Shown here piece by piece: positions 5,851 through 32,896 of a DNA stretch of 64,000 nt (positions are counted from its first letter, which is position 1; every line of letters begins with the position of its first letter). The notes under the pieces are model-generated. The model worked only from the letters and a program-made list of their open reading frames with translations, was not told the DNA's origin and made no database searches. The stretch comes from Prostheceraeus crozeri (Eukaryota > Platyhelminthes > Polycladida > Euryleptidae). The stretch covers positions 124,001 to 188,000 of the forward strand of contig CAJQUW010001859.1 in assembly GCA_907163375.1 (NCBI GenBank). Reading direction: 5' to 3'. Both the position numbers and the translations under genes were made by a program.

Positions 5851-5922
5851 CCCTCCCTTCTAATTTCTAGGGGTCCCTTCTGACTTCTAGGGGTCCCTAT
5901 AAGAAATTTTTTAAATTATAAA

Positions 5923-6366
5923 ATGAGCAACATAAATGAGTTTTTGAAATTATATGGAACACAAACAACAACGAATTTCGATTTAAAGAAAATCGCAAAT
6001 CAATTGGGAATAAAGAATTTTCATGTTCTGATGAGAGACGAATTACAATTCCTAAAAAATAAGCCAACAGGAACCTTCAGTTCCCGGAACAAAGTTCCAT
6101 CAATAACTATAAATTTCATAACAAATCTTCATACGTCAGATGAAAAAGGAATACATTGGTCTGCAGGTATCTTTAATAAAAATCGAGATAGTTACTATTT
6201 CGACCGCCCGGAGGCTGAGAACTATTGGTTCGACTCTTATGGACTTCCACCTACAAACGAAGTCAAAAAATTACTTGGCAATGGAATTTAAAATACATTT
6301 CAAATTCAAAAACCAGGAACTACAGATTGCGGTCAATTATGTCTTTATGTTTTATTTAAATTATAA
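5923..6366 (+). pseudogene. Adenain-like cysteine protease (maturation protease), broken
   Basis: Related to the adenovirus protease/Ulp1 (C5/C48) fold that processes virion proteins in Polintons. Visible residues are the catalytic His in IHWSAG, Asp in WFDSYG, a Gln in FQIQ and the nucleophile Cys in TDCGQLC. A TAA at 6289-6291, where copy B has a Tyr codon, truncates the protein before Gln and Cys, so this copy should be inactive. A 39-bp double-hairpin element (6069-6107) adds about 13 residues in frame upstream of the His and is absent from copy B. The start ATG is preceded by TATAAA, as at other genes of this element. It is transcribed towards the element interior. Confidence 0.85.
6069..6107. 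repeat. Double-hairpin element inside protease gene
   Basis: Two adjacent hairpins: GGAAC-CTTCA-GTTCC (6070-6084) and GGAAC-AAA-GTTCC (6086-6098). Copy B has an empty site here. The insertion is 39 bp and keeps the reading frame. Confidence 0.85.
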
Positions 6367-6471
6367 AAAGGAGTACCATTTCTAGATATTATGTTAGAAT
6401 TGAATAAGGGAATTGAATAAGGGAATTTAATTCCCGAAAAACGTTAGTTCCAATAATAATGATAATGATAA

Positions 6472-7832: not shown

Positions 7833-7863
7833 TTTTAAAGATAAAATAAATGTTTTACCTTAT

Positions 7864-7876
7864 GGACCAAAGGTCC
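7864..7876. repeat. Hairpin element in intergenic spacer
   Basis: GGACC-AAA-GGTCC followed by TGAGGT; it lies just after the stop of the membrane protein. The same hairpin occurs at 44860-44872 in copy B and could act as a 3-prime end structure. Confidence 0.6.
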
Positions 7877-7884
7877 TGAGGTTA

Positions 7885-8247
7885 TTACCGAATTATACTA
7901 GGACTTAGATATATTCCAGAACCATCTTTAGTTTCTTTAATTTCAATTAAATCATCAACATTGTGGAGAATATTTTTAAGAACTCGTTTTCCTTCATCAA
8001 CTAATTTTAATTTACTAATAAAATTATCTACTATTCCGTCACCCCTAGCAACTTTCTCTAACTCTCTATTATGACGTTTTTGTTCTTCTAATGCTGCCTT
8101 CTCTGACTTATTTTTATTTACTGCTTGGACAATACCAGCTGTACCACCTGCAACACTTCCTGCTGCTGCTATGCCACCTATTATTAGTGGAATTAATGGG
8201 AGAATCCCGCCATTCTTTTCTTCTTGTAATTGAATATTCTCTATCAT
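7885..8247 (-). CDS. Small Gly/Ala-rich membrane-active virion-type protein
   Basis: A 120-aa protein. Residues about 13-45 form a long Gly/Ala/Ile hydrophobic stretch (GGILPLIPLIIGGIAAAG...) followed by a charged helical region rich in Lys/Glu. Proteins with this layout are common between capsid and integrase genes in Polintons and resemble adenovirus minor core or membrane-active proteins, but I cannot assign a specific homologue. It is identical in layout to 44489-44851 in copy B and intact in both, lying between the 36-aa ORF and PLA2-integrase. Its ATG lacks the TAAAA leader seen at most neighbours, so it may be translated from a shared transcript. Confidence 0.7.
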   Translation of the reverse strand: MIENIQLQEEKNGGILPLIPLIIGGIAAAGSVAGGTAGIVQAVNKNKSEKAALEEQKRHNRELEKVARGDGIVDNFISKLKLVDEGKRVLKNILHNVDDLIEIKETKDGSGIYLSPSIIR

Positions 8248-8255
8248 TGGTTTAC

Positions 8256-8366
8256 TTATGTAATACTTTTTTTATTAATAGTAATAGTCTTAGGGGTATT
8301 TTTGTCAACAATATTACGTAATTTTAATTCAACAGTTTTATTATTATTACTTTTCGCTTGCGACAT
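8256..8366 (-). CDS. 36-aa conserved small ORF, unknown
   Basis: A short Lys/Thr/Asn-rich ORF starting MSQAKSNNNK. It is conserved in frame and sequence in copy B (44370-44480) and its start has the family leader TTAAAAATG. Conservation between the two copies and the promoter-like context support translation. Function is unknown; the basic composition would suit a virion core or DNA-binding peptide. Confidence 0.5.
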   Translation of the reverse strand: MSQAKSNNNKTVELKLRNIVDKNTPKTITINKKSIT

Positions 8367-8520
8367 TTTTAATAAAAAAATTTTAAGTTATCAAAAATTT
8401 TAATCTATTCCAGTTATGAATAAATTTTAAATTAGGAATTTTTAATCTATTCTAGTTACAAAAAAAATTTATTACTAATTACTAAAAAAAATTTAAGTTA
8501 ACAAAAATTTTAATTAACTT

Positions 8521-8553
8521 ATCGGAGCGAAGCTCCTCGAGGCTTCAGCCGAT
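8521..8553. repeat. Double-hairpin element at capsid gene 3-prime end
   Basis: GGAGC-GAA-GCTCC followed by GAGGC-TTC-AGCC, the whole bounded by ATCGG and CCGAT so that it can also fold as one larger palindrome around TCGA. It supplies the last codons and the stop of the capsid gene and is present in copy B at 44201-44233. Confidence 0.8.
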
Positions 8554-8861
8554 CCTAGCCATCTTTCCATTAAGAATTTCAATAGAATATTTTACATCTT
8601 CTAGCAATAAACCATAAGCCATCAATGAAGTTGTGGAATCTTTCTTTTCAATATTAATTGTTACATTACAACCAGTCTTGATAATATCTTCAGATTGTGC
8701 ACTTAAATCGAAACAGAAAACAGGATATAAATGTCTCCAATCTCCAGGAGTTAATTGTGGTTCAACTCCAAATTCTATACAAAGATTTCTATAAGAATCA
8801 TATCCTTCCATAAATTGATTATTGGTATCATCGAATCTTAATGGATCAATTGGATATCGGG

Positions 8862-9972
8862 CAGTGGCGTGCGGTCCATATATGCGATGCATGCGGCGAA
8901 TGCGTATGCAAATTTGAGTAATCTGATTATTCATTATGTTCAACACGTTTATTTCATCAAGTATCAGTTAGATGGCCTTCCAATTGTCAGTAGGGCGTAT
9001 GACGACATCACAAAATTCCATCTTCATAAATGAATTACATAACTGGGTGAATATTTAGTGGAGGCATCGCCGCATCCAACCTCCCATTCATTATGCATTG
9101 ACTCCTCATACAGCGGCGATGGAGCCAGGCGTCAGCGTACAGAGGCGGGAGCATTCGGTCGCTCAATCGCATGCTTGCAAATTAGGGAAGGAAAACTCTC
9201 GCTGTAGTTGTGTGCATGCCACTCAGTGCACACAATGTATGAAAGCCACACGCTTTGTAATCTGGCGGTAATCATGTTACTGTGAGCAATTTCCGCAAAC
9301 TCTGTTTGACGAGTTTAAAGACAAGTAGGCTACGGCCATTTGTTTGATTTTCCTCGGTTGCGCAATGAGCTGATCGTTCTTTACAAAAGTAATGAATTTC
9401 GTACGTACAATATCCATGAACTGAATGTTTATTTCGAAAGACAAAATTTGGGTGCAACGCTGCCTGAGACAAACAAATTCACGAAACTGGCACTGACCTT
9501 TCCCAGTACCACGGCGTCCTGTGAACGATCATTTTCTGCACTAAAGCGGATCAATTCTTTCACTAGGACCAGTCAAGGTGAAGAGAGATTGTCAGCTCTC
9601 GCCGCTATCGCCATCGAGAAGGAGTTGTTGAATAAATTTCAGGACAACTCCTCCGTCTTCTACGACACTGTCATCAATGACTTTATCAAGAAGTCTCAAA
9701 GAATGGATCTTTAAATGATTTTTATTTTCGATTTTATACAGAATATATCTGAAATGTATAATACTAGTTGTTTTGTGAATTTTATATGTAGATGAATGTG
9801 TTGGAAACTATAATAAGTATTGGCTGGTGATAAGCTGATCATGTACATGTACATATAACTTATAACATGCAGCATGTACATAGATTATAAAGGCTAGGCA
9901 TACATGTTATCATGCACTATGGTAGACTAAATATATCGCATGCCCACCGCTTGAGACCACCGCACGCCACTG
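8862..9972 (+). mobile_element. hAT element inserted in capsid gene
   Basis: Termini CAGTGGCGTGCGGT and ACCGCACGCCACTG are perfect 14-bp inverted repeats. Flanking 8-bp duplications ATATCGGG at 8854-8861 and 9973-9980 are identical, as expected for hAT. The capsid reading frame resumes exactly across the site. Copy B has no insertion, so this event postdates integration of copy A. The interior is internally deleted and keeps only the 3-prime part of the transposase. Confidence 0.95.
9340..9714 (+). pseudogene. hAT transposase C-terminal fragment
   Basis: The frame ends with the hAT dimerisation domain: LALTFPSTTASCERSFSALK, then RTSQGEERLSALAAIAIEK. This is the C-terminal block of ZBED/KIAA-type hAT transposases. 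The BED zinc finger and the catalytic RNase H-like core are absent, so the protein is not active and the element depends on a full copy elsewhere. Confidence 0.9.
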
Positions 9973-11079
9973 ATATCGGGTTTGATTTAATGAAACTTGT
10001 AAACTTCGAATTGTATTAATATGAAAAAGATTGTTGCTCTTATCAAAACTTGGAGAATTATTTCTTTGAAATGTTAGTAATAAATATCTTGGAGTATTTG
10101 AAGTTCTAGTAAAATGCCAGTTAAATCTTTGTTCGGAAAAAGTGACAGAACTAGCAGTACGCTTTAGAAAATTTACTGGAATTGGTTTGTTAGTATTTAA
10201 TCTTTTTGCAATAGCTGTTTCAATATCTAAACTAGGAGTAATATGCTTAATCCACCATTCAAGTCTATCAATTTTTAAATATGCTTTTTTTCCAGTCTTA
10301 CCAAAAAAGATTAATTCATTATTTGCTGTACGATGAATTATTAACTTAAATTTTAATTGAATGATATTTTATCATAATCTAAATATCCGAATAATGGAGA
10401 CAATGACCAATTTACTGTCTGTTTACTTTTCTTGTTAAATTCACGTCTTTCTTTATATGCACTATTGTTTGTTTTATTTAAATGTTTTGCAATATTTTCT
10501 ACATCTTTCGCAATTCCTGCTGCATCTGTTCCAGCGTGAGTTAAATCATCAACAATTATACCATCATTAGTATCAGGAAACCAACCTTCGATTTCATACT
10601 TTTTATTATTTTCACCAATTGTTACAAATCTAAGCATTGTATCAATTACACCTGGAGAATCACTTATTGTTTCTATATTTTGAGTTGCAACATCTAAACG
10701 CATTTGTGTAAATAATCTTGGAAAAAAATTATTCTCTAGTGCAATATTATCGGTTTCTGGTAATGGTGTTGTAAAATTGGCATCACTATACAAAGAATAT
10801 TCACAGTGTAAAAATGAATCCCGTAGATATATATAACTCTGCTGATTATCAACTTCAAAAATTAAATCACCTCCAGTATTTACTCTACTGGAAGATCCGG
10901 GATTCATAGCAATTCTTATATAGTCATTCTTTTTTTGATTGCAACTGACGAACGGAGGATCGTCTAATCTAAATTTATTTTCGATAAGCGAAGACATTTT
11001 TATAAAAAATAATTTGACTTTTTGTTTTTCTCACACACAGAAAAAATTTTACTAAAAAATTTTACTAAAAAACATAATT

Positions 11080-11646
11080 TTAGAATTTTGCTAGACCAGC
11101 TCCGCTACAGCTTTGCTGGTTAAACTGAAGGTTGCTGCTCACGCCATTTCCTCTTATTTCTTCAATTGAACGTTTTATGGCTACGCCTGATTTCTTCTTA
11201 TGTTTAGTATCAGACGGAGCTCCGCTCCTCAAGGTTTCCCCCACAGCTATCTTAGCAATTTTGTTTTTTGTTTCCTCTGAAAGTTTTTTTAAATTTTTTA
11301 GTTCTTCAGAATCATTCCTAAGTTTACGAATAGCTTCTAGTTGTTTTAATTCGTTTTGAGATTTAACAGCATTTGATATTGCACTAGCTGTACTACCTAT
11401 AGCAGCTGCTCCTTTTGCAGCAGATGTAATCAAATCTTTATTATTTTTAATTAAGTAAACGATACTTCCAATACCAGAGAAGATGCCAGCTCCTTCTTTT
11501 TGAACGGCACCTGCGGTGCCTAGGAACTTTTGTGTTCCGATTGTTTCTACACTGTCATAATGGTAAACAGATTTCATAGATGGTTCATGAGCAATTTTTT
11601 GATTTGAAGCAAAATGTTTAAGATTGTGTTTATAAATTATAGGCAT
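11080..11646 (-). CDS. Virion-type Ala/Gly-rich protein, 188 aa
   Basis: Residues about 50-95 are an Ala/Gly/Ile hydrophobic or amphipathic segment (GIFSGIGSIV...AAKGAAAIGS), followed by a charged coiled-coil-like helix (about 96-130) and a basic tail with KHKKKSGVAIKRS. The position directly upstream of the capsid gene and the Lys-rich tail resemble adenovirus internal virion proteins such as VI or core proteins; this is inference only. It is intact in both copies (B: 42169-42735). It contains hairpin elements in frame: GGCACC-TGC-GGTGCC near 11506 and GGAGC-TCC-GCTCC near 11216, which encode part of the protein. Confidence 0.7.
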   Translation of the reverse strand: MPIIYKHNLKHFASNQKIAHEPSMKSVYHYDSVETIGTQKFLGTAGAVQKEGAGIFSGIGSIVYLIKNNKDLITSAAKGAAAIGSTASAISNAVKSQNELKQLEAIRKLRNDSEELKNLKKLSEETKNKIAKIAVGETLRSGAPSDTKHKKKSGVAIKRSIEEIRGNGVSSNLQFNQQSCSGAGLAKF

Positions 11647-11734
11647 TTTTTAGGATTAAATTTGACTTTTGGGAAAAAATATTTACGTTAATATTTGCGC
11701 TAAGATTTACGTTTAGGATTGGTTAGGAACCTGA

Positions 11735-11782
11735 GGACCTTTGGTCCGATCGGCTAAAGCCTTGAGGAGCTTCGCTCCGATA
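11735..11782. repeat. Cluster of hairpin elements between fibre-like and 188-aa genes
   Basis: GGACC-TTT-GGTCC (11735-11747) is followed by a GGCTAAAGCC hairpin and GGAGC-TTC-GCTCC. The same cluster occurs in copy B at about 42034-42080. It lies in a spacer between co-oriented genes. Confidence 0.7.
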
Positions 11783-11807
11783 GGTTAAAAACCCAAGACT
11801 TCGTCGA

Positions 11808-12695
11808 TCAAGATTTACGTTTGTGAATGGACAACAACTTCGAGATAACTTTATTAATTGACTGTTGAACTTTATCTATTGCATCAAGCAGCGTGTGATG
11901 TACTTTAATTTCTTTTCTATTAACTTGCATTTTCTGCTGATTAATCTTCAACGCCGTTTTAAGAGCATTTAACTTAATTTTAAGAACATCTAATTGTCTT
12001 TTAACAGCATCTAACTGTTCTTTATTTTCTTTAGAGTTTTCTTGTAAATTTTTCTTTAATTCATTTTCTAAATTGATTTTAAGAGTTTTCATTTTATCAA
12101 CTTTTTGATTAAGCGAGTTTACTTCATTTATTATTCTATTCATCTTTTTCATTTGTTGAGTAATTTTAGAACTCAATTCATCAACACTTTTTTGGAATGT
12201 AGTTTGTAACTGCTTTAAATTTTTTTAAATTCTTTCAGGAAGTTTTTCTATTTCATCTTCTAATTGTTCTTTCAATAGTTGTATCTGATGTTTATTTTTA
12301 ATGACTGCAGATTTTAAATTTATAGAAAGTAATATTAAAATTTTTGATTGTTCTGAAATCTTTTTAAAAAGTTTTGCTATATCTGCTTCTAGCTCTCTAT
12401 CCTTTTTATCAAGTTTTAATAATTTTTCGTTTAATGATTTGTCATTAAGTTTAAGCAACTTTAATTCATTCATCAGTGGAACCAAAACATCGTTTATATA
12501 TTTTTCTTTTAAGTCATTGATTTGTGTATCAACATATTGTTTATTTGTTAACTCTGTATTTTGTTGCGGAAGAATAGAAAGATGCAATGGACCAGATAAA
12601 ACGTCTCCAGTTTTCATGATATAATTTTCTATTTCTATTTCTGATTCACGATTATTCGGGATATATGCACATCCACCAACATTTGGTAACATCAT
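11808..12695 (-). pseudogene. Coiled-coil fibre-like protein, broken by one stop
   Basis: Orthologue of the intact 295-aa protein at 41120-42007. The N-terminus carries MKTGDVLSGPLHL and TNKQYVDTQI, the pattern seen at bases of phage-type tail fibres and collar proteins, followed by about 230 residues of Leu/Lys/Glu/Asn heptads. A TAA (12225-12227), where copy B has Arg, splits the frame into 156 and 122 codons. It is divergently arranged with the clamp-like gene, with a 74-bp spacer between them. Confidence 0.75.
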
Positions 12696-12769
12696 TTTTT
12701 AAAAATAAAAAAATAAATTTTTTCTAATAAAAATAAAAAAATAAAATTTTTTCTAATAAAAATAAAAAA
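12696..12769. promoter_or_regulatory. Divergent promoter spacer (copy A)
   Basis: A nearly pure A/T spacer between the divergent fibre-like and clamp-like genes, made of about two copies of an AAAAATAAAAAAATAAATTT-like unit. Copy B has about four units here (40987-41119). It must hold both start regions; no other motif is visible. Confidence 0.5.
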
Positions 12770-14164
12770 ATGGATAAAGCAAATTTAAAAAAATTATATT
12801 CGTCCGCATCATCCTGTTCTTCTTATTCGACGAGATCAACGGGATTTGAAAATAAATGTTTTGATAATAATAATAATAATAATCCATGTATAGATGTTAA
12901 TATTTTATTTCAATTACAAGCCGAAATATTTAGAGAACAGACTAAAGGTTTACCTTCTATAGAAACTAATTATTGTTTATTTCCAGGTGGTCCATTTATA
13001 AAATTTATGGAGATTGTAAGTAAATATAATGATGTTGCGTATGTAGAATTGAATAAAGAAAATATGGTAATCATTGGTCATAATAATGTTTACGGATTCA
13101 TTAGAGCAGTTTTGCCGATTAGTAATACTGAGTGGATAGAAAATAAAATTATCAATTATATCAATATTAAAGAATTAGTTAAAAAATTAAAATCATTTTC
13201 GAAAGAAAAAATAAGATTATTTGTTGATGAACAAAACCAATATAATATTCATATAGAAAGTAAAAAACATAATGAAGAATTATTATGTCAAGTTTATTAC
13301 AGAGATACAATTTATAAACAAGAAACATTAGAAATGCCCCAAAGATATGATGATGATACTTATATAGGATTAAATTCAAATTTAAATATTAATTTATTAA
13401 AATCTTATATAAATGGTTTAGCTCAACAAGAAAAAATTTATATGTGGACAACACCTTATACGTGGACTACACCTTATACTATTAACAATGACCATAATCA
13501 TAATCATAAAAATTTTAAAGAATCTTATAATAATAAACGAACCGAAGGTTCTAGGGCTTTGCCCGATCTTAAAGAATCTTATAATAATAATGATGATAAC
13601 ATAGACGATGATTCTGAAACATCTGAAAAAGGTGTAAATGGTAAAAAAGATTACAAAAATATTAGTAATTATAAAAATTTAAGTGAAGAAAAATTTATAT
13701 CTCATACCGATGTACATGATATTAATACTACATATAATGAAAATTTATCTAAATTTCATTTTCTTACAATTGAAAATAATAATGATGGTATAGTTGAAGA
13801 TACTGTTAGACAACTATGTGTCGGGTCTACAAAATTTAAATTAGGATTTACATCTAATCAATTTAAAATTTTATCATCTTTAATAAAAACTAAAAGTGAT
13901 TCAGATTATGGTGGTGTTATTAAATTTTCCAAAAGAGATCAAAGACCAATATTTTTCTCTATTATATTATTATCAGATAAAAGATGTAATTTAGAATTAT
14001 ATATTCCAATAAGAGAATGGTATCCAATCAGGGAATGGCATCCTATACCAAAAAGTGTAATTTATGATGTTGAAGAAACAATTTATGATGATGATGAAGA
14101 ATCAATAGTTAGTGAAAATAAATTTAAATTATCTTTTGATAAAACGTTATATGATGAAACTTGA
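12770..14164 (+). CDS. Putative sliding-clamp-like (PCNA/Rad9-fold) protein
   Basis: A 464-aa protein. The N-terminal half has a clamp-domain-like order: FIKFMEIVSKYNDVAYVEL, then IINYINIKELVKKLKS followed by IRLFVD and a beta strand NIHIES. After an Asn/Asp-rich disordered linker (about 235-330) a second half has FKLGFTSNQFKILSSL and GGVIKFSKRDQRPIFFSI followed by LELYIP, similar in order to the last strands of PCNA or Rad9. A tail rich in Asp/Glu follows. If correct it would tether the neighbouring PolB to DNA. This is a fold-level guess from strand patterns; no diagnostic motif exists. A double-hairpin element (13538-13566) encodes RTEGSRALP in the linker. The frame is open here but broken in copy B. 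Confidence 0.5.
   Translation: MDKANLKKLYSSASSCSSYSTRSTGFENKCFDNNNNNNPCIDVNILFQLQAEIFREQTKGLPSIETNYCLFPGGPFIKFMEIVSKYNDVAYVELNKENMVIIGHNNVYGFIRAVLPISNTEWIENKIINYINIKELVKKLKSFSKEKIRLFVDEQNQYNIHIESKKHNEELLCQVYYRDTIYKQETLEMPQRYDDDTYIGLNSNLNINLLKSYINGLAQQEKIYMWTTPYTWTTPYTINNDHNHNHKNFKESYNNKRTEGSRALPDLKESYNNNDDNIDDDSETSEKGVNGKKDYKNISNYKNLSEEKFISHTDVHDINTTYNENLSKFHFLTIENNNDGIVEDTVRQLCVGSTKFKLGFTSNQFKILSSLIKTKSDSDYGGVIKFSKRDQRPIFFSIILLSDKRCNLELYIPIREWYPIREWHPIPKSVIYDVEETIYDDDEESIVSENKFKLSFDKTLYDET
13538..13566. repeat. Double-hairpin element in clamp-like gene
   Basis: GAACC-GAA-GGTTC, TA, then GGGC-TTT-GCCC; in frame, encoding RTEGSRALP. Copy B has the same element at about 40193-40220. Confidence 0.85.
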
Positions 14165-14562
14165 TATGATAAAACTTAATATGATAAAGAAAATAAAATA
14201 ACTAAAGAACGTAAAATATATAATAATATAAAATAACTCTCAAGACCTTGTTATTAGAATGTTTATATCTAAAATTAAAACACAATTTTTTCCTTAAAAA
14301 ATAAAAAAATGGAAAATACCAAGTTTTATTGTAACTTATGTAAAAAAAAGTTGCAAACAAAAAGAAGTTATCAATCTCATTTAAATAGTAAATTGCATTT
14401 ACAAAATGTAGAACGAGTTGATGAAGGAAATATATTAAAATTAAATAGTTATAAAAACTATCTAGAAACATTGCCTACTGATGTAAAAGTTAAAAAAATG
14501 TTTGATGATTATTCACACTCGGAATATAAAAAAGTTTTTAATAGTGAAGATGAGACCATACA

Positions 14563-14589
14563 AACCGAAGGTTCTAGGGCTTCGCCCGT
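14563..14589. repeat. Double-hairpin element in PolB N-terminal region
   Basis: AACC-GAA-GGTT, CTA, then GGGC-TTC-GCCC; encodes TEGSRASP. Copy B has a diverged element at the same site (about 39143-39170) encoding RTDCSRAWP. Confidence 0.8.
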
Positions 14590-14658
14590 ACTAGATGGAA
14601 GATATTTATTTAGCGATACAGATGAATTTAACGAAATAGATGAGTTTGATGAAGCCGA

Positions 14659-14689
14659 ACGAACCGAAGGTTCTAGGGCTTCGCCCATA
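14659..14689. repeat. Second double-hairpin element in PolB N-terminal region
   Basis: GAACC-GAA-GGTTC, TA, GGGC-TTC-GCCC; encodes RTEGSRASP. At the matching place copy B carries a different family member with GACATC-TTT-GATGTC (39001-39034). Confidence 0.85.
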
Positions 14690-16241
14690 ACAGATATAAA
14701 ATATTTATTTAATCAGTCCGTTGAACATAATGAAACCGATGAAACTTTTTCTGATATTCTAACCAACTTTTATAATATATTTAAGAAATCTTTCAAATGT
14801 TATATGAATGTAGAAGTACTTTATACAAAAAATGGACCTGATGGAATTCCTGAAGAAATAATACAAGGACATTTTACAAATTCACAAGAAATTCATAATG
14901 TAAATGATATACAACCCATATTTGAATCGATGATACTTAAATTAGAAAATTGTATAATTGAAGCCCAGTTACGTGAATCTGGTTGAAGATTTGTTAAAAT
15001 ACTATCTAAGAAAATAGTAATTGATAAATATAAAAATAATACTGGTGGTAGTTATGTTCCTTTACCTTTCAGTTCACGACAAATAATTAACATAAAAAAT
15101 GAAGATGATTATTGTTTTCTGTGGAGTATTATAGCACATTTACATCCTCCAGAATATCATAAAGAAAGACTAAGTCATTATAATAAAGAAAAATACATAA
15201 ATGAATTTGATCTTTCGGATGGTTTAGATGAATTTCCATATGATTATAATAGGTTAAAAAAGTTTCATGAAAAGAATATAAATTTAATAGAAGTAAATGT
15301 TTTTGAATTAAATGTGAATTATGTTTCTATTGGTAAAATTACTCCACTTTACTCAGATTCAAAAAAATTTTATTTGAATAATAAAAATTTATGTCAATCA
15401 GAAATAGTATATAATGATAGAGGAAATTACATGCATCATAATATTTTTTACCAAGGAAATATAATATGTACTGAAAAATTTCAAATTGTTAAAACTCTAT
15501 CACCAATAATGATTAATCATAATAATTATAAAGGACGTAATTATAATTATGATTATAATTACAAATATCTTTAGAATATCAACAAAAATTACAAAATTTA
15601 AATGAAATTTTAAAAAAATGTAAAACAGATTATCAACAACAAACAAAAATGTTACTACAAGAATATCACCATAAATATCAAAATAAGATAGAAACGATTC
15701 AAGAATTAAATAAAGACAATAAAGACAATAAAGAATTAAATAATGAAGAAAATAAAGAATTAAATGAATGTTTAAAAAAAATGTCAACAACAATATAAAG
15801 AACAATATGATAAAGAATATGAACAACAGCTACAAATATTAAATGAAAATTTTCATCGAAATACATTTAATCTTACAAAAGAAATTGATGAAACACATGA
15901 AATATATAAAGATAAATTTGAAAAATTAAAACAAACAAAGCAACCAGCACAAGCGAATATATTATATTATCAGGGTCATTTTATATTGTGTAAAGATGTT
16001 TCTATATTTACAAAAACTTCAGATAATGCTAATTTTCCCTGTCTCCAATGTATGACGAGCTTTAGAACTAAAGAAGAAATGAATAGACATTTGGAAAATT
16101 GTCAACAAAACGAAGCAGTTGAAAATACTTTTCCTAAAGATGATTATTTAGAATAAAATAAATGGTATTTCAAAAGTAAAATACCCTTTACTATTTATTG
16201 TGATTTTGAAGCATATAATGTTAACATGACACAAAATCACC

Positions 16242-16332
16242 AGACATCTGAGATGTCTTCCAGGGCTTCACCCAATTCTGAAAATTATAATTATGAAAAT
16301 GGTACGGGCCAAGCCCTAGAACCTTCGGTTTG
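16242..16332. repeat. Two double-hairpin elements in opposite orientation in PolB
   Basis: At 16242-16272: GACATCTGAGATGTC followed by GGGC-TTC-ACCC. At 16303-16332: GGGC-CAA-GCCC, TA, GAACC-TTC-GGTTT, the reverse orientation of the usual unit. Copy B has only one degenerate element in this stretch (about 37385-37410). Confidence 0.75.
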
Positions 16333-16663
16333 TAAATATGAAAAAAGTGCAGCTGAACAAAGTAAAGAAAAATATTTATTTGAACAAAAACCATTATGTT
16401 GGGGAATGTACATTCATTCAAATTATCCTGAATTATTTAAATCAGAATATTATCAATACTATGGTGAAGATAGTTCAGAAATGTTTACAAAGAAAGTAGA
16501 AGAATTACAAGGACGTTTTTCACAATTGCTTGAAACAAATATACCAATGATGCCATTAACAGAAAAAGAAAAATTAAATTTTATTAATGAAACAAAATGT
16601 TATTACTGTGGAAAAGAATTTACAAAAAATTATAAAATTGGCAAAGGTAGATATCTTGACAAG

Positions 16664-16687
16664 CGAAGCGACGGCTCCGCCGTCAAA
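16664..16687. repeat. Hairpin element inside PolB zinc/His region, copy A only
   Basis: Contains GACGGC-TCC-GCCGTC. It adds exactly 24 bp (8 codons) between Lys and Val just before the DHDHLNG block; copy B lacks it. Confidence 0.85.
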
Positions 16688-17406
16688 GTAAAAGATCATG
16701 ATCATCTAAATGGATTATTTAGAGGTGCAGCACATAATTCTTGTAATCTTAATGCTAATAAATTTAAATATAACTTTGTTCCTTTATATTTCTACAATGG
16801 TTCTAAATATGATTTCCATCTAGTAATGAAAGATTTATTTTCATCTGAAAAATTACAACAACAACAAATAAATGTACTATGTAAAACAGAAGAAGAATAT
16901 TTTTCAATGCAATTAGGTTGTATTAGAATTTTAGATGCATTTAGATTTTTTACTCCTTATTCATTAGATGTTATGGGAAAAACTTTGAAATCTGAACAAT
17001 GTAAAATATTAGATAAATATAATTTAAAACCTTTAAAAGGCATATTTCCGTATGAATATATAACTGGAGATAAAACCTGTGGTTCACAGTCGAAGACTGA
17101 TTTTAATTCTGTGAATAAAATTATGGAAGAAAAACAACTTCCTCCAATAAATAAATTTAAATCAACATTAAAACAATCACAATTATCTGAAGAAGACTAT
17201 GCAGAAGCTGAAAAAAATTGGAGAGAGTTAAATTGTAGAACAATGTATGATGATAGAATGAAATATCTTCAGATAGATGTATTAATACTAGCTGATCTTT
17301 TTGAAAACTTTCGTGACATGTGTTTAGAATGTTACGGAATAGATCCATGTTATTGTTATTCTACACCAGGTTTAACATGGTTAGCAGGATTAGAACATAC
17401 TGGTGT

Positions 17407-17436
17407 TCAAGCCGATGGCTCTAGGACAAAGTCCGT
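17407..17436. repeat. Double-hairpin element in PolB, copy A only
   Basis: GCC-GAT-GGC, TCTA, GGAC-AAA-GTCC. It inserts 30 bp (10 codons, QADGSRTKS-type) relative to copy B. Confidence 0.85.
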
Positions 17437-17773
17437 TAAACTTAAACATTATAAAGAAAATACATATGATAAATTATTATTTTTTGAATCTGGAATTAGA
17501 GGTGGAGTTTCATCAGTTTTAGGTAATCGTTATGTACAGTGTTACAATAAAAAAGTAAATCCTGATGATTATGGAATAATGAAACCTTTATCTCCAGAAG
17601 AAAAAGAAAAAATATTAGAAATTTTTCGAACGAAACGAGAAGGAGTAGAACGTGAAAATGCAATTGATGAATTCATGAGAGAAAACTATTTGTTATATTA
17701 TGATTTTAATAGCTTACATTCTTCTTGCATGATACAAGAATTACCAACAGGTGAAATGTCATGGTGTAATATT

Positions 17774-17812
17774 CGTACGACATCAGAGATGTCTACTAGG
17801 GCTTCGCCCGTT
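17774..17812. repeat. Double-hairpin element in PolB palm region, copy A only
   Basis: GACATC-AGA-GATGTC, TACTA, GGGC-TTC-GCCC. It inserts 39 bp (13 codons, TSEMSTRASP) shortly after polymerase motif A; copy B runs straight from Asn-Ile to Leu-Asp. Confidence 0.92.
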
Positions 17813-19055
17813 CTTGATTATCAAAAAACATATGATGGAAATTATAATCATGGTTATATATATGAAGTTGATTTAGTATATCCTGATGAAATAAAAGATA
17901 AAACAAAATATTTTCCTTTCTGTCCCGAAAACAAAATTCCCAATATAGAAGATTTTTCAGATTATCAAAAATCTTTAATTCCTAAGAAATACAGACCAAC
18001 AAAAAAACTTATGTTAACACAAAGCAATAAAGGAAAGTATGTTGTTGAAGGAAGAATGCTAGATTGGTATTTAGAACATGGAATGATTCTCACCAAAATA
18101 CATCGAAAACTATTTTATCAAAAATCTAGGTGGTTAAAAGATTATATAGAGTTCAATATTGAAAAACGTAAAATAGCTAAAAGAAATAAAGATGATTTTG
18201 GAAACGTGTTCTTCAAATTAATGAATAATGCATTTTATGGTAAGACTTTAGAAAATGTGCGTAATAGACAAAATATTGAAATAGTTTATGATAAAGATAG
18301 GTTTCAAAATTTAACAAGGAAACCTACATATAAAAGAACTACTAGATTTAGTGATGAACTATGTGCTGTACATTTACGTCGAATCAGCGTAGAACATGAT
18401 AAGTTTAATTTTATTGGATTCACTATATTAGAATTAGCTAAACTATTTATGTATAGATTTATATATGATTATTTAGCACCTGCTTATGGCAAAAACTATA
18501 AATTACACTTTACAGATACCGATTCTGTTTTCTTAGAATTAATAATACCGTATAATTCTACACTTGATGAAGAAATTAATAAAATAAAAGATATAATTCA
18601 TCCTTCTGATTTATGTAAAGTAAAAGATGAATTAGAAGGAAATGAAGATTTCATAACAGAAGCTATATTTTTAAAATCTAAATGTTATTGTTATAACACA
18701 ACTAATAATATTAAAACACATAAAACATTAAAAGGAATTTCAAAGGCATCAGTGGCTAATCAAATAACATTTCAAGATTATAAAAATGTATTATTTAATA
18801 ATGAAATAAAAACAGCATGTAATTATAGACTTAATTCAAAAAAACATAAAATGTATTTAAAAGAAGAACATAAATTAGCATTAGATCCATTTGATGATAA
18901 AAGAAAAATTTTACCTGATGGAATAACTACTTTACCTTTTTAATTTTCTAATTTCTAAGATAGACAAATTTGATATATACATAAAATAAAAAATAATAAA
19001 ATATTATAACACTATATTTATATATTTTTTTATCACTCGGTAAACAAATGTTCTA

Positions 19056-19095
19056 TCGACTTTCAGTCGGGGCGAAGCCCCTCGAGGCGAAGCCT
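19056..19095. terminator. Hairpin cluster between convergent PolB and ATPase genes
   Basis: CGACT-TTC-AGTCG, then GGGGC-GAA-GCCCC, TC, GAGGC-GAA-GCCT. It overlaps the ATPase stop codon and separates two convergent genes. The same cluster is at 34690-34731 in copy B. A transcription-end role is inference from position. Confidence 0.5.
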
Positions 19096-19859
19096 AGTCA
19101 GAGAACAATTGTTCGATAACTCTATCATGAATTTTTTATCAATATTAATTGTAATGAAGCCATAATCTTTTGACCAAGCATTGTTACACGATTGTTTAAA
19201 TTCATCTTTATTTCTTACACATAAATCTCTTAACAAATCACTTAAGTTTCTTGCATTTATTTCAAATAGTATAAATATATTTGCATTCTTTCTAATAACA
19301 CTTCCGTCTAATGAATACATACTTTGTGTTAAATAAAAAACACTACAGTTATTATGTCTACCTCTTGTGAAATAATTTCTCTGAACTGACTGATTTCTAT
19401 CATTAACACAATCATCAAAAATTACACAATGTTTCATTGTTTTATCTAGTTTACTAGGATCTTGCATATTACCACTATCATCTATTAATTGTATCTTTAT
19501 ATGCTTATTTTTATTGGATTCTACTAACTGACTATTTTTTGCTGCTTCTTCACACCACGAACTTATTTCTTCTTCATCTTCAGATTTTTCATATTCTTTG
19601 AATAATGAAGCAATTGCTGTTTTTTTAAGATTATTTTCAAATCCATATTTTAAAAATTGATAGACGGGTTGTTCTGCCGTTGTTGTATAAATTATAAGAT
19701 TGTTATAATCCAAAAAATTTGGAGTCGTTAAAATTTTAAATAATAGATACATTTTCCACAACCTGATCTTCCGCAAATAACTGACAAAACTTTATTAGAT
19801 AAATTTGGATGATGATTAAATTTAAGTTTCTTTTTATTTAATGGGGGTACTTCACTAAT
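19094..19859 (-). pseudogene. FtsK/HerA-type genome-packaging ATPase, broken
   Basis: Orthologue of the intact 255-aa ATPase at 33923-34690. The start ATG is replaced by ATT (19857-19859). A one-base loss at about 19752 disrupts Walker A right after GCGK, and another near 19130 shifts the C-terminus. The remaining frame shows Walker B (CVIFDD) and the downstream GRHNNCSVFYLTQS block of A32-like ATPases. The gene product would pump DNA into capsids; this copy is dead. Confidence 0.92.
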
Positions 19860-19928
19860 TTTTTAATAAAAAAATTTATTTTTAAAGAAGAAGAAGAAAA
19901 TTAAACTTCTCTAGCTTCGCGTGGGAGT

Positions 19929-20717
19929 TTATACCTCCCGAACCAAAAGATCTATCATAATCTCTTCACCTCCAAAATTTATTTCTTGTCCTTTCTCATC
20001 AGTGATTCTAATGCCAATGTTGTTAATAGTTTTTCTTGTAATAGGAAAATATATTAATGTTTGTGGAATTACATTTAATCTATAACCAATGGGTACAGTA
20101 AAAGCTGGAAAACTGAATATTAAATTTGACAATTTACCATTTATATATCCTCCTTCAATAATGTCACAATGTACAACAATTGAATCTTTTTCAGTTATTT
20201 TTGGAATCTTCTCACCTAAATGATAACCTTGACTATAGGTTTGTTTATTAAATCCTAATAGCTTTGACAATGATCTATCATGATTAAAATCAACTTGATG
20301 ATTTTCGTCTAAAGTAAGAGAAATTTTATTAACTGCCGGTTCAACTGCAAAATGTAATTGTTTCTTATCTTTAAATGGTATTCCTAAATGTCTCTTAATT
20401 TCATTTGATATTGATTCAACTTCGTAAGAACCAGGAAGAAAAGTTTGTATTTTCCATGTTTTGCCTTTATCAGTGGAATATCTAAATTGATCATTCACAT
20501 CTTTGATAACGTTTTGAATAGTGTTAAATGTGGAGAAACTAGTCAATGCAATTTGATAATTTTTATTCTGTTCTAAATGTAGAATGGGTTCTAAATTACA
20601 AGTGTGTGATGAAGTAGTTGTTATAATTTTTAACGTCGTACTAAATTTTGATGAACCCAAAATCTCTGTTAGATTTTCTAAATGATTATTAATTTTGTCT
20701 AAATCTGCTGAACACAT
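19929..20717 (-). CDS. Minor capsid protein (penton, single jelly-roll)
   Basis: A 262-aa protein, intact here and in copy B. Its pattern is that of Polinton penton proteins: YQIALTSFSTFNTIQNV near residue 55, FRYSTDKGKTW, PGSYEVESISNEIKRHLG near 95-115, and a C-terminus with GQEINFGGEEIMIDLLVREV. It would occupy the five-fold vertices of the virion. It lies next to the packaging ATPase, the usual morphogenesis pairing. The start has the leader CTAAAAAATG. A hairpin-bearing spacer (about 19912-19940) follows the stop. Confidence 0.88.
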   Translation of the reverse strand: MCSADLDKINNHLENLTEILGSSKFSTTLKIITTTSSHTCNLEPILHLEQNKNYQIALTSFSTFNTIQNVIKDVNDQFRYSTDKGKTWKIQTFLPGSYEVESISNEIKRHLGIPFKDKKQLHFAVEPAVNKISLTLDENHQVDFNHDRSLSKLLGFNKQTYSQGYHLGEKIPKITEKDSIVVHCDIIEGGYINGKLSNLIFSFPAFTVPIGYRLNVIPQTLIYFPITRKTINNIGIRITDEKGQEINFGGEEIMIDLLVREV

Positions 20718-20783
20718 TTTTTAGTTAAAATTTTAAATAAACATTTTTTATAAAAAATTAAAAACAACAGCATATTTCAGCTA

Positions 20784-20814
20784 CGGGCGAAGCCCTAGAA
20801 CATTCGGTTCGTTA
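20784..20814. repeat. Double-hairpin element at 3-prime end of 270-aa gene, copy A only
   Basis: GGGC-GAA-GCCC, TA, then an imperfect GAAC...GTTCG hairpin. It is a precise 31-bp insertion relative to copy B and replaces the last residues, moving the stop codon. Confidence 0.85.
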
Positions 20815-21607
20815 TACTTTTATAATCCTCTTCATTTAGAATCTTCTTTTCCAGCAGTCTTTTCAATATGGCATGAATTTCATTGAAACTAGAATTATGT
20901 CCTTCTTTTATTGCCGATATTAAAATATTTAATCTATTTAGTAATTTTTGTGGATCATCTGGTAAAAATACAGTTGTTTCTGTTTTAAAACCTTTTCCTA
21001 CTTTAACTCCCGTTGATAATAAATTTTCTAATTGTTTATAACGTTTAAGAGTTTTTCCTGCTTTAACTCTATCTAACATAGCTTTATATTTTATGAGATC
21101 ATCTACAGCATAATTATTTAAATCTGCTCCTCTTAAAAGATCAACAAAATTTCTATCTAAATTAAAAGGAGATTTATCTGGTGAAAAAATTAAACCTCGA
21201 AAAGGTTGTGGAAATATTTCTTTTTGTCCGAGATAAAATCTAGGTATTGTTTTTCCATCTATAAATGAGATAGAATGTTCAAATTGCATAGATTTTGGTA
21301 ATTTCTTATTAATGTTTGATTCTAGTAATCCATAGTCATCTAATATAGTTTTGTGCTCTGGATCTGTTATATCAATTTGTTTATCATTTTTTGTAAGTTC
21401 TTTTTCAAGAGTTTTAAATGGTTTCATAGTTTTTTCGAAATCAGTTTTTACTTGCTCGGTTTGCTGCATTTTTTCAAACATATCAGATTGAATACCAGCT
21501 TTTATCATTCTATGTTGAAGATGATTTTCTTTCATAATATTTCTTTGTTTTATTAACTCTTCTAATTGTTTTATTCTTTTAAAATTATCAGCTGTAATTT
21601 TATCCAT
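20795..21607 (-). CDS. Conserved Polinton-family protein, unknown, 270 aa
   Basis: Starts MDKITADNFKRIKQLEELI after a TTTTAAAAATG leader; a longer frame begins 22 codons upstream but lacks that context. The N-terminal 110 residues are Lys/Glu/Gln-rich and likely coiled-coil. The central part has FIDGKTIPRFYLGQ and PFRGLIFSPDKSPFNLD; the C-terminus has FLPDDPQKLLNRLNILI and ends in helices. I do not recognise it. It sits between a membrane protein and the penton gene. The C-terminus here is altered by a 31-bp double-hairpin insertion. Copy B has a premature TAA. Confidence 0.7.
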   Translation of the reverse strand: MDKITADNFKRIKQLEELIKQRNIMKENHLQHRMIKAGIQSDMFEKMQQTEQVKTDFEKTMKPFKTLEKELTKNDKQIDITDPEHKTILDDYGLLESNINKKLPKSMQFEHSISFIDGKTIPRFYLGQKEIFPQPFRGLIFSPDKSPFNLDRNFVDLLRGADLNNYAVDDLIKYKAMLDRVKAGKTLKRYKQLENLLSTGVKVGKGFKTETTVFLPDDPQKLLNRLNILISAIKEGHNSSFNEIHAILKRLLEKKILNEEDYKSITNRMF

Positions 21608-21728
21608 TTTTAAAATATAATATTTGAATTTTGTGGTAACATTGGAATACAGCAAAAACATTTTACTGAACAAATTATTTTTTTATTGCTTTGTTGTCTG
21701 ACATCTTTTCGTTTAAAGTTTTCTCGTT

Positions 21729-22355
21729 TTAAGTTTTGTTTAATAAAGTTTTGTTTGATAAAGTTTTGCTTAAATTTTCGCTTAAAGTTTTTAGCTCTTC
21801 TAAAAAAATTTTATCATTTTCTTCATTAGAAATTTTACCATCACTAGAAATTTTGCCATCACTCGAAATTTTGCCATCCTGTTTATTCTTATCATCAACT
21901 TTTTCTGACTGTAATTGAAATGATATTTGATTTACTTCATTAGCTATTTGATCAAATTTTTCAATCTCATCTAACGTAATAACATTATCATCACATACTC
22001 TTTGAAAGTAGTAATGTAGTTTATCATAGACTTCTTTAATATGTAAATGCTTAGTTCTTAATGATTTTCGTTTCTTAGTTATTAAAGATTTATCTAACAT
22101 TGTAACAAGTGAAGTTGCAAAAACACCCGTACCTGTTAAAGCTGTAGCAACTACTGGAATTACTAAAACACCAGAAGATATAACAATAGTGAGAGCGCCT
22201 AAACTTATTGTTAAGAATATGCCAATTCCTTGTGTTACATTCTTAACATTAGTCCATCTCTTTCTTAATTTTTTATAATGTTCTAGTCTAAGTAATAATT
22301 ATGATTCCTTATCTTTCATATACCTAACTCTATCTTTGTGTTTTTCTTTATTCAT
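21729..22355 (-). pseudogene. Two-segment membrane protein, broken
   Basis: Orthologue of 31353-31946 in copy B. After about 18 codons a TAA replaces a Gln codon (near 22303). The rest is open: a hydrophobic region, then KSLRTKHLHIKEVYDKLHYY and a Lys/Glu-rich tail. The tail contains three DGKISS repeats against two in copy B, so a short in-frame repeat is changing copy number. Function unknown. Confidence 0.7.
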
Positions 22356-22594
22356 TTTTCAATGTCCATTAAAGTAGAACTACGTTCATATGATAACGAG
22401 GGATATATTCTTGCGGTTTCTTCCATTTTCGTCGTCGCCGTTGCCGTCGCTGTCCCCGTTGAGGTTTCTTCCACTTTTGTTTCATTCATTTTTAAAGAAA
22501 TATTTTGAATACAATCGTCTGAAATTCTATTTAAATCGAAATTTGCAGTTGTTTGTTTGCCGTATAATTTAAAAAACTCATTTATGTTGCTCAT
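22352..22594 (-). CDS. Chimeric small ORF with protease-like N-terminus
   Basis: 80 codons. The first 25 residues (MSNINEFFKLYGKQTTANF) match the N-terminus of the protease gene at the other end of the element. The frame then runs into an MNETKVEETS segment, a Thr/Ala repeat and MEETARIYPSLSYERSS, which in copy B is a separate 42-codon ORF (31250-31378). None of the protease catalytic residues are present. It is probably the product of recombination between the two ends. Expression is uncertain. Confidence 0.5.
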   Translation of the reverse strand: MSNINEFFKLYGKQTTANFDLNRISDDCIQNISLKMNETKVEETSTGTATATATTKMEETARIYPSLSYERSSTLMDIEK

Positions 22595-22714
22595 TTTTAT
22601 AGAAGACAAAATGTTTCTATTATATTCTCGTAAATGCGAAATTAAAAACAACACATGGATATTTCAATATGTATATTTACAAAAATGCAACCACACAAGT
22701 CTACAAATATTGAT

Positions 22715-23030
22715 GTCCACACCGTGGACAAGGAATTTTCGTTCTCCAGTAAAAGAAAATAAAATCAGCTACTACTATTCAACTTTCTTAAAACAATCGG
22801 TTATTAACTATAATATTACAAATTGCATTAACAAATGTCCACACCGTGGACAAGGAATTTTCGTTCTCCAGTACAAGAAAATAAAATCAGCTACTACTAT
22901 TCAACTTTCTTAAAACAATCGGTTATTAACTATAATATTACAAATTGCATTAACAAAATGTCCACACCGTGGACAAGGAATTTTCGTTCTCCAGTAAAAG
23001 AAAATAAAATCAGCTACTACTACTTTAAAC
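22715..23030 (+). repeat. 122-123 bp tandem repeat
   Basis: About 2.6 units beginning at 22715, 22837 and 22960. Each unit starts with the hairpin GTCCAC-ACC-GTGGAC. The third unit diverges after about 70 bp. It is absent from copy B. Confidence 0.85.
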
Positions 23031-23201
23031 TTCTTTCCAAAAGCTTTCATATTTCCGAAGACAATCTTCTAACAATGATAAATTCGATTTCAAAAAACGT
23101 AAGGGTACATTTAGTCTACAAATCTTTGGAAAAATAGATGCCATCTTACCTAATTTAATTGCAAATGCAATTTCAGTCCTTGAATAAGAAATGTTATTAG
23201 T

Positions 23202-23696
23202 TTACAATAAATGTTGAAAGTATACCTTATCCTTTTCACACAGTTCCAGTAAATAATTCGCGTGTTTTCCCAGGTAGATTTTCATCATTATGTTAATAAC
23301 GTTATTTTTCTTCTCCATCACATAAAGAGTATTTAAATTTGCAATGGCTTCAGCAGTATCTCCTGAAGGCTCAACAAAGTCTTCTAAGGAATCCACAAAT
23401 TCATATCGGGTAGATAAAGACGTCGATAATTGATGATGAAGGTCGTCAATCTTTCCGCCCCTTTCTCTTTCTTTCTTTTCTTTCACGAGTAAGCGTTTTG
23501 CTTTTCTTCTCCGTTTTCTTTCCTTATCAAAAAATGTAGGGTCAAAAACAATAGGAAATTTCTCCATTTGTTCAATGATGAAAGTGTTATATTCTTCCTT
23601 CTTATCATTGGAAATATATCGTTTTGAAATTTCTGTAAATAACTCCGGAAACGTAGCAATAATGTTTGACTGCTCTTCGATAACTTCTTGTGTCAT
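23202..23696 (-). CDS. Unidentified 164-aa ORF in the extra right-arm segment of copy A
   Basis: Begins MTQEVIEEQSNIIATFPELF and contains a strongly basic stretch (KERKRRRKAKRLLVKEKKER) that could be a nuclear signal or DNA contact. It is Glu/Lys-rich and probably helical. Near its 3-prime end, codons for DK are followed by GTATAC, which would also fit a splice donor, so this could be a host exon carried inside the element. No counterpart exists in copy B. I do not recognise the family. Confidence 0.4.
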   Translation of the reverse strand: MTQEVIEEQSNIIATFPELFTEISKRYISNDKKEEYNTFIIEQMEKFPIVFDPTFFDKERKRRRKAKRLLVKEKKERERGGKIDDLHHQLSTSLSTRYEFVDSLEDFVEPSGDTAEAIANLNTLYVMEKKNNVINIMMKIYLGKHANYLLELCEKDKVYFQHLL

Positions 23697-24000
23697 GACT
23701 GATCACAGCGCAGCACACGATACAATGACAGACGAGAGAGATAAATGAAAACAGTACAGCTGGCAGATATCTTAACGTGATACGGGTGTGCTGACGCACT
23801 GACAAGAATTAAAACAACTTGCCTAACGTACAATTAAAATCTCATTGTTTCACAGAGTAGTAGCAGCTGTTTGTTCTTTCATACATTGTTTCCTTTCAAA
23901 TGTTTGAGTTGGAGGTCACAGCTCTTTACACTGAAATGCCTTTTCTTCATAAATGCGAGAAGCAGATGTTCTCTACAATTGTGTGATCATCTGAGTGCAA

Positions 24001-24031
24001 AGCAGTAGCAACTACTGGAATTACTAAAACA
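24001..24031 (-). pseudogene. Stray fragment of the membrane-protein gene at the right repeat edge
   Basis: About 30 bp here match the membrane-protein gene segment near 22141-22170 (encoding VLVIPVVAT) and are joined directly to the terminal repeat. This marks a rearrangement junction in the right arm. Confidence 0.7.
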
Positions 24032-24536
24032 CCTGGAACGGTCATGATTTTCAAAGTAAAATGTCACAATCACAAATTTGAGATTCTTAACTTTTCTGAT
24101 TTTTTCGGTGTCCTGGAACGGTCATGATTTTAAGGGCGGGTGTAAAATTGTAATTCTCAAATTTTGAGATTTTGAAAAATTTGAAAAATTGGGTATTTTT
24201 AAAAACGGTTTTTTCTTCATAACCTGAAAAAGGGTTCAAATTCATGAATTTATGTCGTTTTTAAAAAGTACCATTTTTTGAAAAATGGTACTTTTTGAAT
24301 GGACTAAATTCATTTATTTAGGTCTTAAAAACCTGAAAAAGGGTTCAAATTCATGAATTTATGTCGTTTTTAAAGATACTATTTTTTGAATTTTATGGTG
24401 TCCTGGAACGGTCTAAATTCATGAATTTAGGTCTTAAAAACCTGAAATAATGACATAAATTGATAAATTTAGTCGTTTTTAAAGATACTATTTTTTGAAT
24501 TTTATGGTGTCCTGGAACGGTCTTTTGCCCATTACT
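24032..24536 (-). repeat. Polinton A right terminal inverted repeat
   Basis: Inverted match to 5264-5740. It carries the motif GGTGTCCTGGAACGGTC repeatedly and ends at GCCCATTACT followed by the target duplication AAAGTC (24537-24542). Confidence 0.9.
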
Positions 24537-32895: not shown

Positions 32896-32896
32896 T

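What the first reader, a model, noticed from the sequence alone, without database searches (positions are those of the whole stretch)
17774..17812. Mobile double-hairpin elements inserted in frame in a virus-like element
A family of 24-40 bp units, each two tiny adjacent hairpins mostly with 3-nt loops (for example GAACC-GAA-GGTTC plus GGGC-TTC-GCCC), is spread through both Polintons. Comparing the siblings gives clean filled/empty sites: filled only in A at 6069-6107, 16664-16687, 17407-17436, 17774-17812 and 20784-20814; filled only in B at 38927-38965. The five fully coding insertions are 39, 24, 30, 39 and 39 bp, all multiples of three, and add peptides such as TSEMSTRASP. Frame preservation implies they arose while the genes were functional. 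Rickettsia palindromic elements and fungal mitochondrial double-hairpin elements are the closest known analogues; I know of none described in Polintons.
Basis: partly seen in the sequence, partly recalled or inferred. Interest (0 to 1): 0.93.

Follow-up and report, generated by a model that had tools for sequence, protein, structure and literature searches.

The report
Mobile double hairpins inside Polinton genes
Tiny DNA units that fold into two hairpins are scattered through many copies of a virus-like element in one animal-like genome and sit inside its genes without breaking the reading frame, a kind of mobile element known so far mainly from mitochondria.

Summary
The window carries two sibling Polintons (A 5264-24536, B 30502-47502). 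Strict double hairpins number 12 in A, 9 in B and 0 in 27.7 kb of flank; shuffle means are 0.01, 0.02 and 0.32. The host assembly (2.05 Gb, unnamed) holds 7,588 exact copies of one hairpin, against 19 for its reversed control; 28 of 28 hits taken from that list lie in copies of this Polinton. Sixteen coding sites are filled in some copies and empty in others, with length differences of 24-42 bp that are multiples of three; of six non-coding or gene-edge sites one is. Polymerase relatives lack the inserts tested, so these are gains. Two or more flanking bases are repeated at 8 of 14 coding sites measured. At 13 of 14 sites the unit has one orientation and phase relative to the gene (by eye). 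Best reading: mobile double-hairpin elements tied to a Polinton, probably copied while it replicates, with selection on its proteins filtering survivors. The copying step is inferred. Kinship with mitochondrial double-hairpin elements was not tested.

The parts
5264..24536 (+). Polinton A (terminal repeats at both ends)
   Evidence: Inverted terminal repeats and collinearity with B; PolB PF03175 9e-13
30502..47502 (-). Polinton B, sibling of A, 92-95% identical in the three long aligned blocks
   Evidence: double jelly-roll capsid PF21738 2.5e-18, integrase rve 4e-9, A32-like ATPase 4e-7
17774..17810 (+). 37-nt double-hairpin unit in the polymerase gene, TT on both sides; the given finding
   Evidence: Empty in B and in most other copies read; length difference 39
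6066..6104 (+). 39-nt insert in the protease-like ORF, A only versus B
   Evidence: filled in 3 of 3 further copies
7285..7321 (-). Double hairpin in the PLA2/integrase ORF, shared by A and B
   Evidence: insert of 33 against one empty copy
11717..11798 (.). Two neighbouring double hairpins between genes, another family (GGTT...AACC with GGACC...GGTCC or GGAGC...GCTCC)
   Evidence: inserts of 31
13538..13565 (+). 28-nt type-1 unit in ORF464, shared
14561..14588 (+). 28-nt type-1 unit in the polymerase N-terminal part; type 2 in L011, both types in L028, empty in others
14660..14687 (+). 28-nt type-1 unit in A; B has a type-2 unit at the same place
16238..16274 (+). Type-2 unit in A; other left hairpins in other copies; empty in L024
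16305..16332 (-). Type-1 unit in the opposite orientation, the one antisense coding case
16663..16684 (+). 22-nt unit in the polymerase gene (length difference 24)
17072..17099 (+). 28-nt unit, shared by A and B, absent from outgroup proteins
17408..17435 (+). 28-nt unit, A only versus B, TT on both sides
19065..19099 (.). Double hairpin at the 3' edge of the ATPase gene, 49-nt length difference (not a multiple of three)
20784..20811 (-). Type-1 unit at the 3' edge of ORF292; 31 nt here, 37 or 38 in other copies, empty in B and L027
38929..38965 (-). 37-nt type-2 unit in B at a site empty in A; type 1 in six other copies of the call
39001..39037 (-). Type-2 unit in B opposite the type-1 unit of A at 14660
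16226..18943 (+). Open C-terminal part (905 aa) of the protein-primed polymerase gene, carrying several inserts

Best explanation
The units are non-autonomous mobile double-hairpin elements living inside one Polinton family of what is probably an animal genome. A unit is two short stems with three-nucleotide loops (28 nt in the commonest form, 37 and 22 nt in others), the commonest bounded by C and G. Shown: it is gained at new sites, at many of them with 2-4 bases repeated on both sides; stem changes are often paired; left and right hairpins combine in different ways; in what was sampled it occurs with Polinton sequence and not in neighbouring DNA. Inferred: copying happens while the Polinton replicates. 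Its protein-primed polymerase displaces single strands, hairpins form on them, and a nascent end pauses there and continues at a short staggered break elsewhere. Selection on Polinton proteins then keeps inserts that preserve the frame and add a polar loop peptide such as RTEGSRASP or TSEMSSRASP.
For: Filled/empty states at 16 coding sites. Gains by outgroup at the sites tested. In L011-L050, 98 units by Polinton homology (174 kb) and 0 outside it (56 kb). Covariation score 0.313 against 0.113 in shuffles, 94.4% of cells paired against 50% or less when slid. At site 17792 the flanking dinucleotide agrees on both sides in two backgrounds: AT left with AT right 4 of 4; TT left with TT right 17 of 19; Fisher 5.6e-4. 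Coding sites 16 of 16 multiples of three, other sites 1 of 6, Fisher 2.3e-4. Four internal polymerase inserts fall in loops of the model, in ten-residue blocks of mean pLDDT under 60; inserts absent from the other sequences of the alignment would be low there anyway.
Against: No enzyme or copying event was seen; the replication step rests on recalled knowledge of Polintons. Exact flank repeats of 2 or more are missing at 6 of 14 coding sites measured (8041, 13539, 14661, 16243, 16306, 17059), perhaps through later mutation or repeats. Four-gamete conflicts at 24 of 28 site pairs show heavy recombination, which can mimic repeated insertion. Two of 19 TT-left copies do not match on the right (L062, L065). 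Units were found by a hairpin scan, so high pairing is partly built in; the number of pairs with both sides changed (3) is reached by 85 of 500 shuffles, pair types (4) by 466 of 500, and the outermost left pair is unpaired in 6 of 12 units.
Confidence: 0.6

Rival explanations
1. Small elements moved in trans by a transposase or by the Polinton integrase, like very short MITEs.
For: Flank repeats of 2-4 bases at 8 of 14 coding sites; a Tc1/mariner-type transposase ORF lies between the two Polintons.
Against: No terminal inverted repeats seen beyond C...G; with one Polinton family in what was sampled; unit length varies while the hairpin pair is kept; the Polinton integrase is recalled to make 5-6 bp duplications.
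Confidence: 0.15
2. Units spread by recombination and gene conversion between Polinton copies; no new-site mobility.
For: 24 of 28 site pairs show all four combinations, and 13 of 13 fully scored copies differ; same-site replacement of one hairpin type by another.
Against: Conversion between equal sites does not put related units at some 20 different places; outgroup proteins lack the units tested; the flanking dinucleotide matches in two backgrounds; L028 alone is filled at 18712, with 13 empty copies.
Confidence: 0.1
3. Insertion at RNA level into sense transcripts followed by return to DNA, explaining the fixed orientation relative to the gene.
For: 13 of 14 coding sites with related units have the same orientation and phase, in genes of both strands (by eye).
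Against: One antisense case (16306); units also lie in terminal repeats and between genes; Polintons are not known to me to encode a reverse transcriptase; selection on the peptide explains orientation more simply.
Confidence: 0.08
4. Ancestral coding sequence deleted in some copies.
For: Precise length differences would fit either direction.
Against: P0001, P0002, P0003 and P0051 lack the inserts tested; related units repeat at many sites.
Confidence: 0.03
5. Ribosome-bypassed hairpins, like the yeast mitochondrial byp elements (recalled; a search gave two papers, listing seen).
For: Hairpins inserted in genes.
Against: Bypassed units need not keep the frame or avoid stops; here the 16 coding sites keep it, and the gene's frame ran open through the unit in the cases translated.
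Confidence: 0.02

Closest known systems
Mitochondrial double-hairpin elements (Allomyces, Schizosaccharomyces) and sponge repetitive hairpin-forming elements
   Same: Adjacent small hairpins, optional between relatives, thought mobile (PMC10085805 and PMC7218506, passages). Sponge elements are occasionally found in protein genes without frameshift (PMC2800124, passages)
   Different: Those are in organelles, mostly between genes or in rRNA genes; here they sit in protein genes of a virus-like element in the nuclear assembly, in very many copies
Yeast mitochondrial GC clusters (GC42)
   Different: 42 nt, mostly intergenic, in mitochondria; no reading-frame rule in the passages seen
Rickettsia palindromic elements
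   Same: Insert in frame into unrelated genes and carry a conserved peptide (PMC10969869, passages)
   Different: About 150 bp, bacterial; here 22-37 nt, two hairpins, inside one virus-like element
MITEs
   Same: Short, non-autonomous, flank repeats
   Different: No terminal inverted repeats seen, a hairpin pair instead, tied to one element family in what was sampled

Membership tests
Mitochondrial double-hairpin elements | Two adjacent short hairpins | tested here: met
   (the 22-nt unit at 16663 folds with one hairpin only)
Mitochondrial double-hairpin elements | Optional presence between related copies | tested here: met
Mitochondrial double-hairpin elements | Location in organelle DNA | tested here: not met
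   98 of 98 units in L011-L050 lie by Polinton homology; the mitochondrial genome was not looked for
Mitochondrial double-hairpin elements | Sequence kinship with known elements | not tested
   No set of known element sequences was compared; the Rfam scan had no match
Rickettsia palindromic elements | In-frame insertion with a conserved peptide | tested here: met
   16 of 16 coding sites in length; 13 of 14 same phase
Rickettsia palindromic elements | Length near 150 bp in Rickettsia genomes | tested here: not met
   Inserts of 24-42 bp at coding sites, 30-49 elsewhere
Yeast GC clusters | AG or ACT flank repeat | tested here: not met
   Flank repeats TT, AT, TA, AC and others
MITE | Terminal inverted repeats | tested here: not met
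   By eye on the aligned units, ends C...G only
MITE | Target-site duplication | tested here: inconclusive
   2 bases or more at 8 of 14 coding sites
Polinton (host element A/B) | PolB, DJR capsid, rve integrase, A32-like ATPase, terminal inverted repeats | tested here: met
   (PolB matched in A; capsid, integrase and ATPase in B)
Polinton (host element A/B) | Adenovirus-type protease | tested here: inconclusive
   ORF 46368-46769 looks like one by eye; no Pfam match up to E 1

The most novel reading that the evidence does not exclude
A parasite of a parasite: hairpins of 22-37 nt that multiply only within a Polinton as it replicates, have settled on insert lengths (unit plus flank repeat) and a codon phase that leave its proteins readable, and so are among the smallest mobile elements of a nuclear genome.
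Probability: 0.45. Interest if true: 0.93.

Novelty: new variant of a known kind. Interest (0 to 1): 0.85.

Why it matters
Mobile hairpin elements have been argued from optional copies in mitochondria, and how they move is open (PMC4478555, passages). Here one genome offers very many filled alleles per site (523 matches to the left junction of one filled site) and empty ones beside them, with flank repeats, paired stem changes and coding constraints to read together. That makes the origin, target choice and copying route of such elements testable by sequence alone. It also shows a virus-like element whose proteins gain and exchange short peptides by DNA insertion.

Tried and rejected
Led nowhere: a two-hairpin pattern of 20 fixed bases in IMG/VR gave one match, in a contig whose genes look like those of an unrelated phage. 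A polymerase profile found no relative in IMG/VR and one distant one in prokaryote genomes. Rfam had no match. None of 120 listed polymerase relatives holds the peptide motifs searched.

Rejected: deletion of ancestral coding sequence at the sites with outgroups; chance hairpins; ribosome bypass (frame and stops). The length rule by itself was not taken as proof, since ordinary A/B indels of 6 or more in the same genes are mostly multiples of three too (18, 24, 18, 15, 6, 6, 12, 15, 18; exceptions 17, 10 and 8). If the two gene-edge sites (19082, 20797) are counted as coding, the contrast falls to 16 of 18 against 1 of 4, p = 0.024. Rows dropped before counting sites: 11120 and 11684 (no empty copy seen), 17811 and 13549 (pairings overlapping real units). 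The row of B mapped to 16218 belongs to site 14661, and the rows placed near 14133 and 14852-14941 are mis-mapped terminal-repeat rows.

Full report
What is there. The window (C1527 of a 2.05-Gb assembly) holds two Polintons in opposite orientation, A at 5264-24536 and B at 30502-47502, 92-95% identical in the three long aligned blocks. Polymerase was matched in A, double jelly-roll capsid, integrase and ATPase in B. The flanks hold an intronless Srw-type receptor ORF and transposon pieces, so the host is probably an animal; the species is not known.

The units. A scan for two adjacent three-base-loop hairpins gives 12 in A, 9 in B and none in 27,726 bp of flank; 100 dinucleotide shuffles give means of 0.01, 0.02 and 0.32. 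A looser scan had one flank place. Loops are closed by C-G in 29 of 34 and 19 of 22 hairpins. The commonest unit is C-GAACC-GAA-GGTTC-TA-GGGC-TTC-GCCC-G (28 nt). A second kind (37 nt) has a GACATC...GATGTC left hairpin with the same right hairpin. As single-stranded DNA the 28-nt unit folds at -6.1 and the 37-nt unit at -7.4 kcal/mol on both strands; two variant 28-nt units fold at -3.9 and -4.5, and the 22-nt unit shows one hairpin. On 12 distinct 28-nt units, 94.4% of cells are paired (50% or less when partners are slid), and the covariation score is 0.313 against 0.113 in shuffles, reached by 0 of 500. Three of nine pairs show changes on both sides, which 85 of 500 shuffles reach; pair types do not exceed shuffles (466 of 500); the outermost left pair is open in 6 of 12. 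The units were found by a hairpin scan and are related, so this supports but does not prove selection on the fold.

Numbers and location. The exact left hairpin occurs 7,588 times in the host assembly; its reversed control occurs 19 times. The eight hits that the tool cut out (two pairs overlap) and 20 further ones that I picked from the list of 100, knowing only their positions, lie in copies of this Polinton, terminal repeats included. Twenty longer stretches, chosen in part because hits clustered there, also map to it. In L011-L050, 98 units lie by Polinton homology and none in 56 kb outside it. Units also sit in the terminal repeats and between genes.

Filled and empty sites. Comparing copies gives 16 coding sites (A coordinates): 6066, 7167, 7303, 8041, 13539, 14563, 14661, 14715, 16243, 16306, 16664, 17059, 17086, 17422, 17792 and 18712, with length differences 39, 30, 33, 42, 30, 30/39, 30/39, 30/39, 39/30, 30, 24, 30, 30, 30, 39/30 and 36. 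At 16306, A against B differs by 45, 30 against other copies. These are multiples of three. Other values also appear in the calls, from repeated flanks or small differences near the site: 24 at 13539, 18 at 7303, 19 at 7167 in one copy, 28 at 17422 in one copy, and a one-base-shorter unit at 14563 in L015. Some sites rest on few empty copies (7303 one, 16243 one). Other sites: 5760 (31), 11718-11741 (31), 11763-11794 (31), 19082 (49, 3' edge of the ATPase), 20797 (31, 37, 38; 3' edge of ORF292) and the terminal repeat (30 most often, 27-31 by which repeat is compared, and a form 7 nt longer in L004, L033 and L049). By site, 16 of 16 against 1 of 6, Fisher 2.3e-4.

Direction. Polymerase relatives P0001, P0002 and P0003 lack the inserted peptides at 16664, 17074, 17405 and 17772 (the loop at 16664 varies in length), and P0051 lacks the two TEGSRASP inserts of the N-terminal part. 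None of 120 relatives holds the motifs searched. At these sites the units are gains. The protease site and the remaining sites were not polarised.

Target. Best exact flank repeats are 2-4 bases at 8 of 14 coding sites measured (7167, 7303, 14563, 14715, 17086, 17422, 17792, 18712) and under 2 at six. At 17792 the 37-nt unit sits between TT and TT in A, L015 and 15 of 17 further TT-left copies, and between AT and AT in 4 of 4 AT-left copies, which are the only AT ones among 100 listed; of the two misfits one reads TC and one AT on the right (Fisher 5.6e-4). Empty copies of both backgrounds exist, and L046 has a 28-nt unit between AT and AT at the same place. Two or more independent insertions are the simplest reading; double conversion is not excluded. 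In the whole assembly 523 places match the left junction of the filled 37-nt form.

Reading frame. At 13 of 14 coding sites with related units (6066 and 16664 carry other units and are left out; 7303 is counted as related by eye), the unit lies in the same orientation relative to the gene and in the same phase, in genes on both strands, giving RTEGSRASP, RTEGSKTKSD, QADGSRTKSV, CGSQSKTD, TSEMS(S/T)RASP and near forms; 16306 is antisense (GQALEPSV) (read by eye). The 28-nt unit has four open frames of six by my reading of its letters, so openness alone does not explain the single phase. In the model of the open polymerase part (mean pLDDT 85.8, 50 sequences) four internal inserts fall in loops, in ten-residue blocks of mean pLDDT under 60; since the other sequences lack them, low confidence there is expected.

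Recombination. Thirteen fully scored copies show 13 different patterns at eight sites, and 24 of 28 site pairs show all four combinations (of six added partial rows four repeat copies already counted). A/B divergence is uneven between genes (pS 0 to 0.20). Total pN/pS is 0.22, driven mainly by ORF464; the capsid and polymerase parts give 1.25 and 1.16 on six changes each. Left hairpins differ between copies at the same site (14563, 14661, 14715, 16243, 17792), and L032 joins the type-1 left hairpin to another right hairpin.

Mechanism. Shown: gain at new sites, short flank repeats at many, paired stem changes, modular hairpins, confinement to the Polinton in what was sampled, and retention of frame. 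Inferred: copying during Polinton replication through single-stranded intermediates, and selection as the source of the fixed phase. An RNA-level route would also give fixed orientation and is kept as a rival.

Known relatives. A full-text search for double-hairpin element listed 13 papers, whose titles and abstract starts concern mostly mitochondrial genomes. Passages of four of them (PMC4478555, PMC10085805, PMC2800124, PMC7218506) and of a MITE review on Rickettsia elements (PMC10969869) were seen. Sponge mitochondrial elements already include rare cases in protein genes without frameshift, so frame-keeping hairpins are not new in themselves. A search for polinton plus hairpin gave 38 papers, of which 15 listings were seen, none announcing such units; (20 of 57 listed) likewise. 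So I know of no report in Polintons, within those searches.

Noticed in passing
window 28204-29241 (-): Open 346-aa Tc1/mariner-type transposase ORF between the two Polintons.
   Followed up: no
window 60194-61432 (-): Intronless 413-aa Srw-type receptor ORF.
   Followed up: no
window 7095-7694 (-): A phospholipase A2-like domain (PF08398) and the start of the integrase core lie in one reading frame in A.
   Followed up: no
window 12770-13600 against 40144-40986: This gene differs far more between A and B at silent sites (pS 0.20) than the six other stretches compared (0-0.04), a sign of patchwork recombination.
   Followed up: partly
L018 and L027: Polinton pieces lie in scrambled or inverted order next to each other, suggesting nested or rearranged copies.
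   Followed up: no
window 20784-20811: The unit at the end of ORF292 supplies the gene's stop codon in A.
   Followed up: partly
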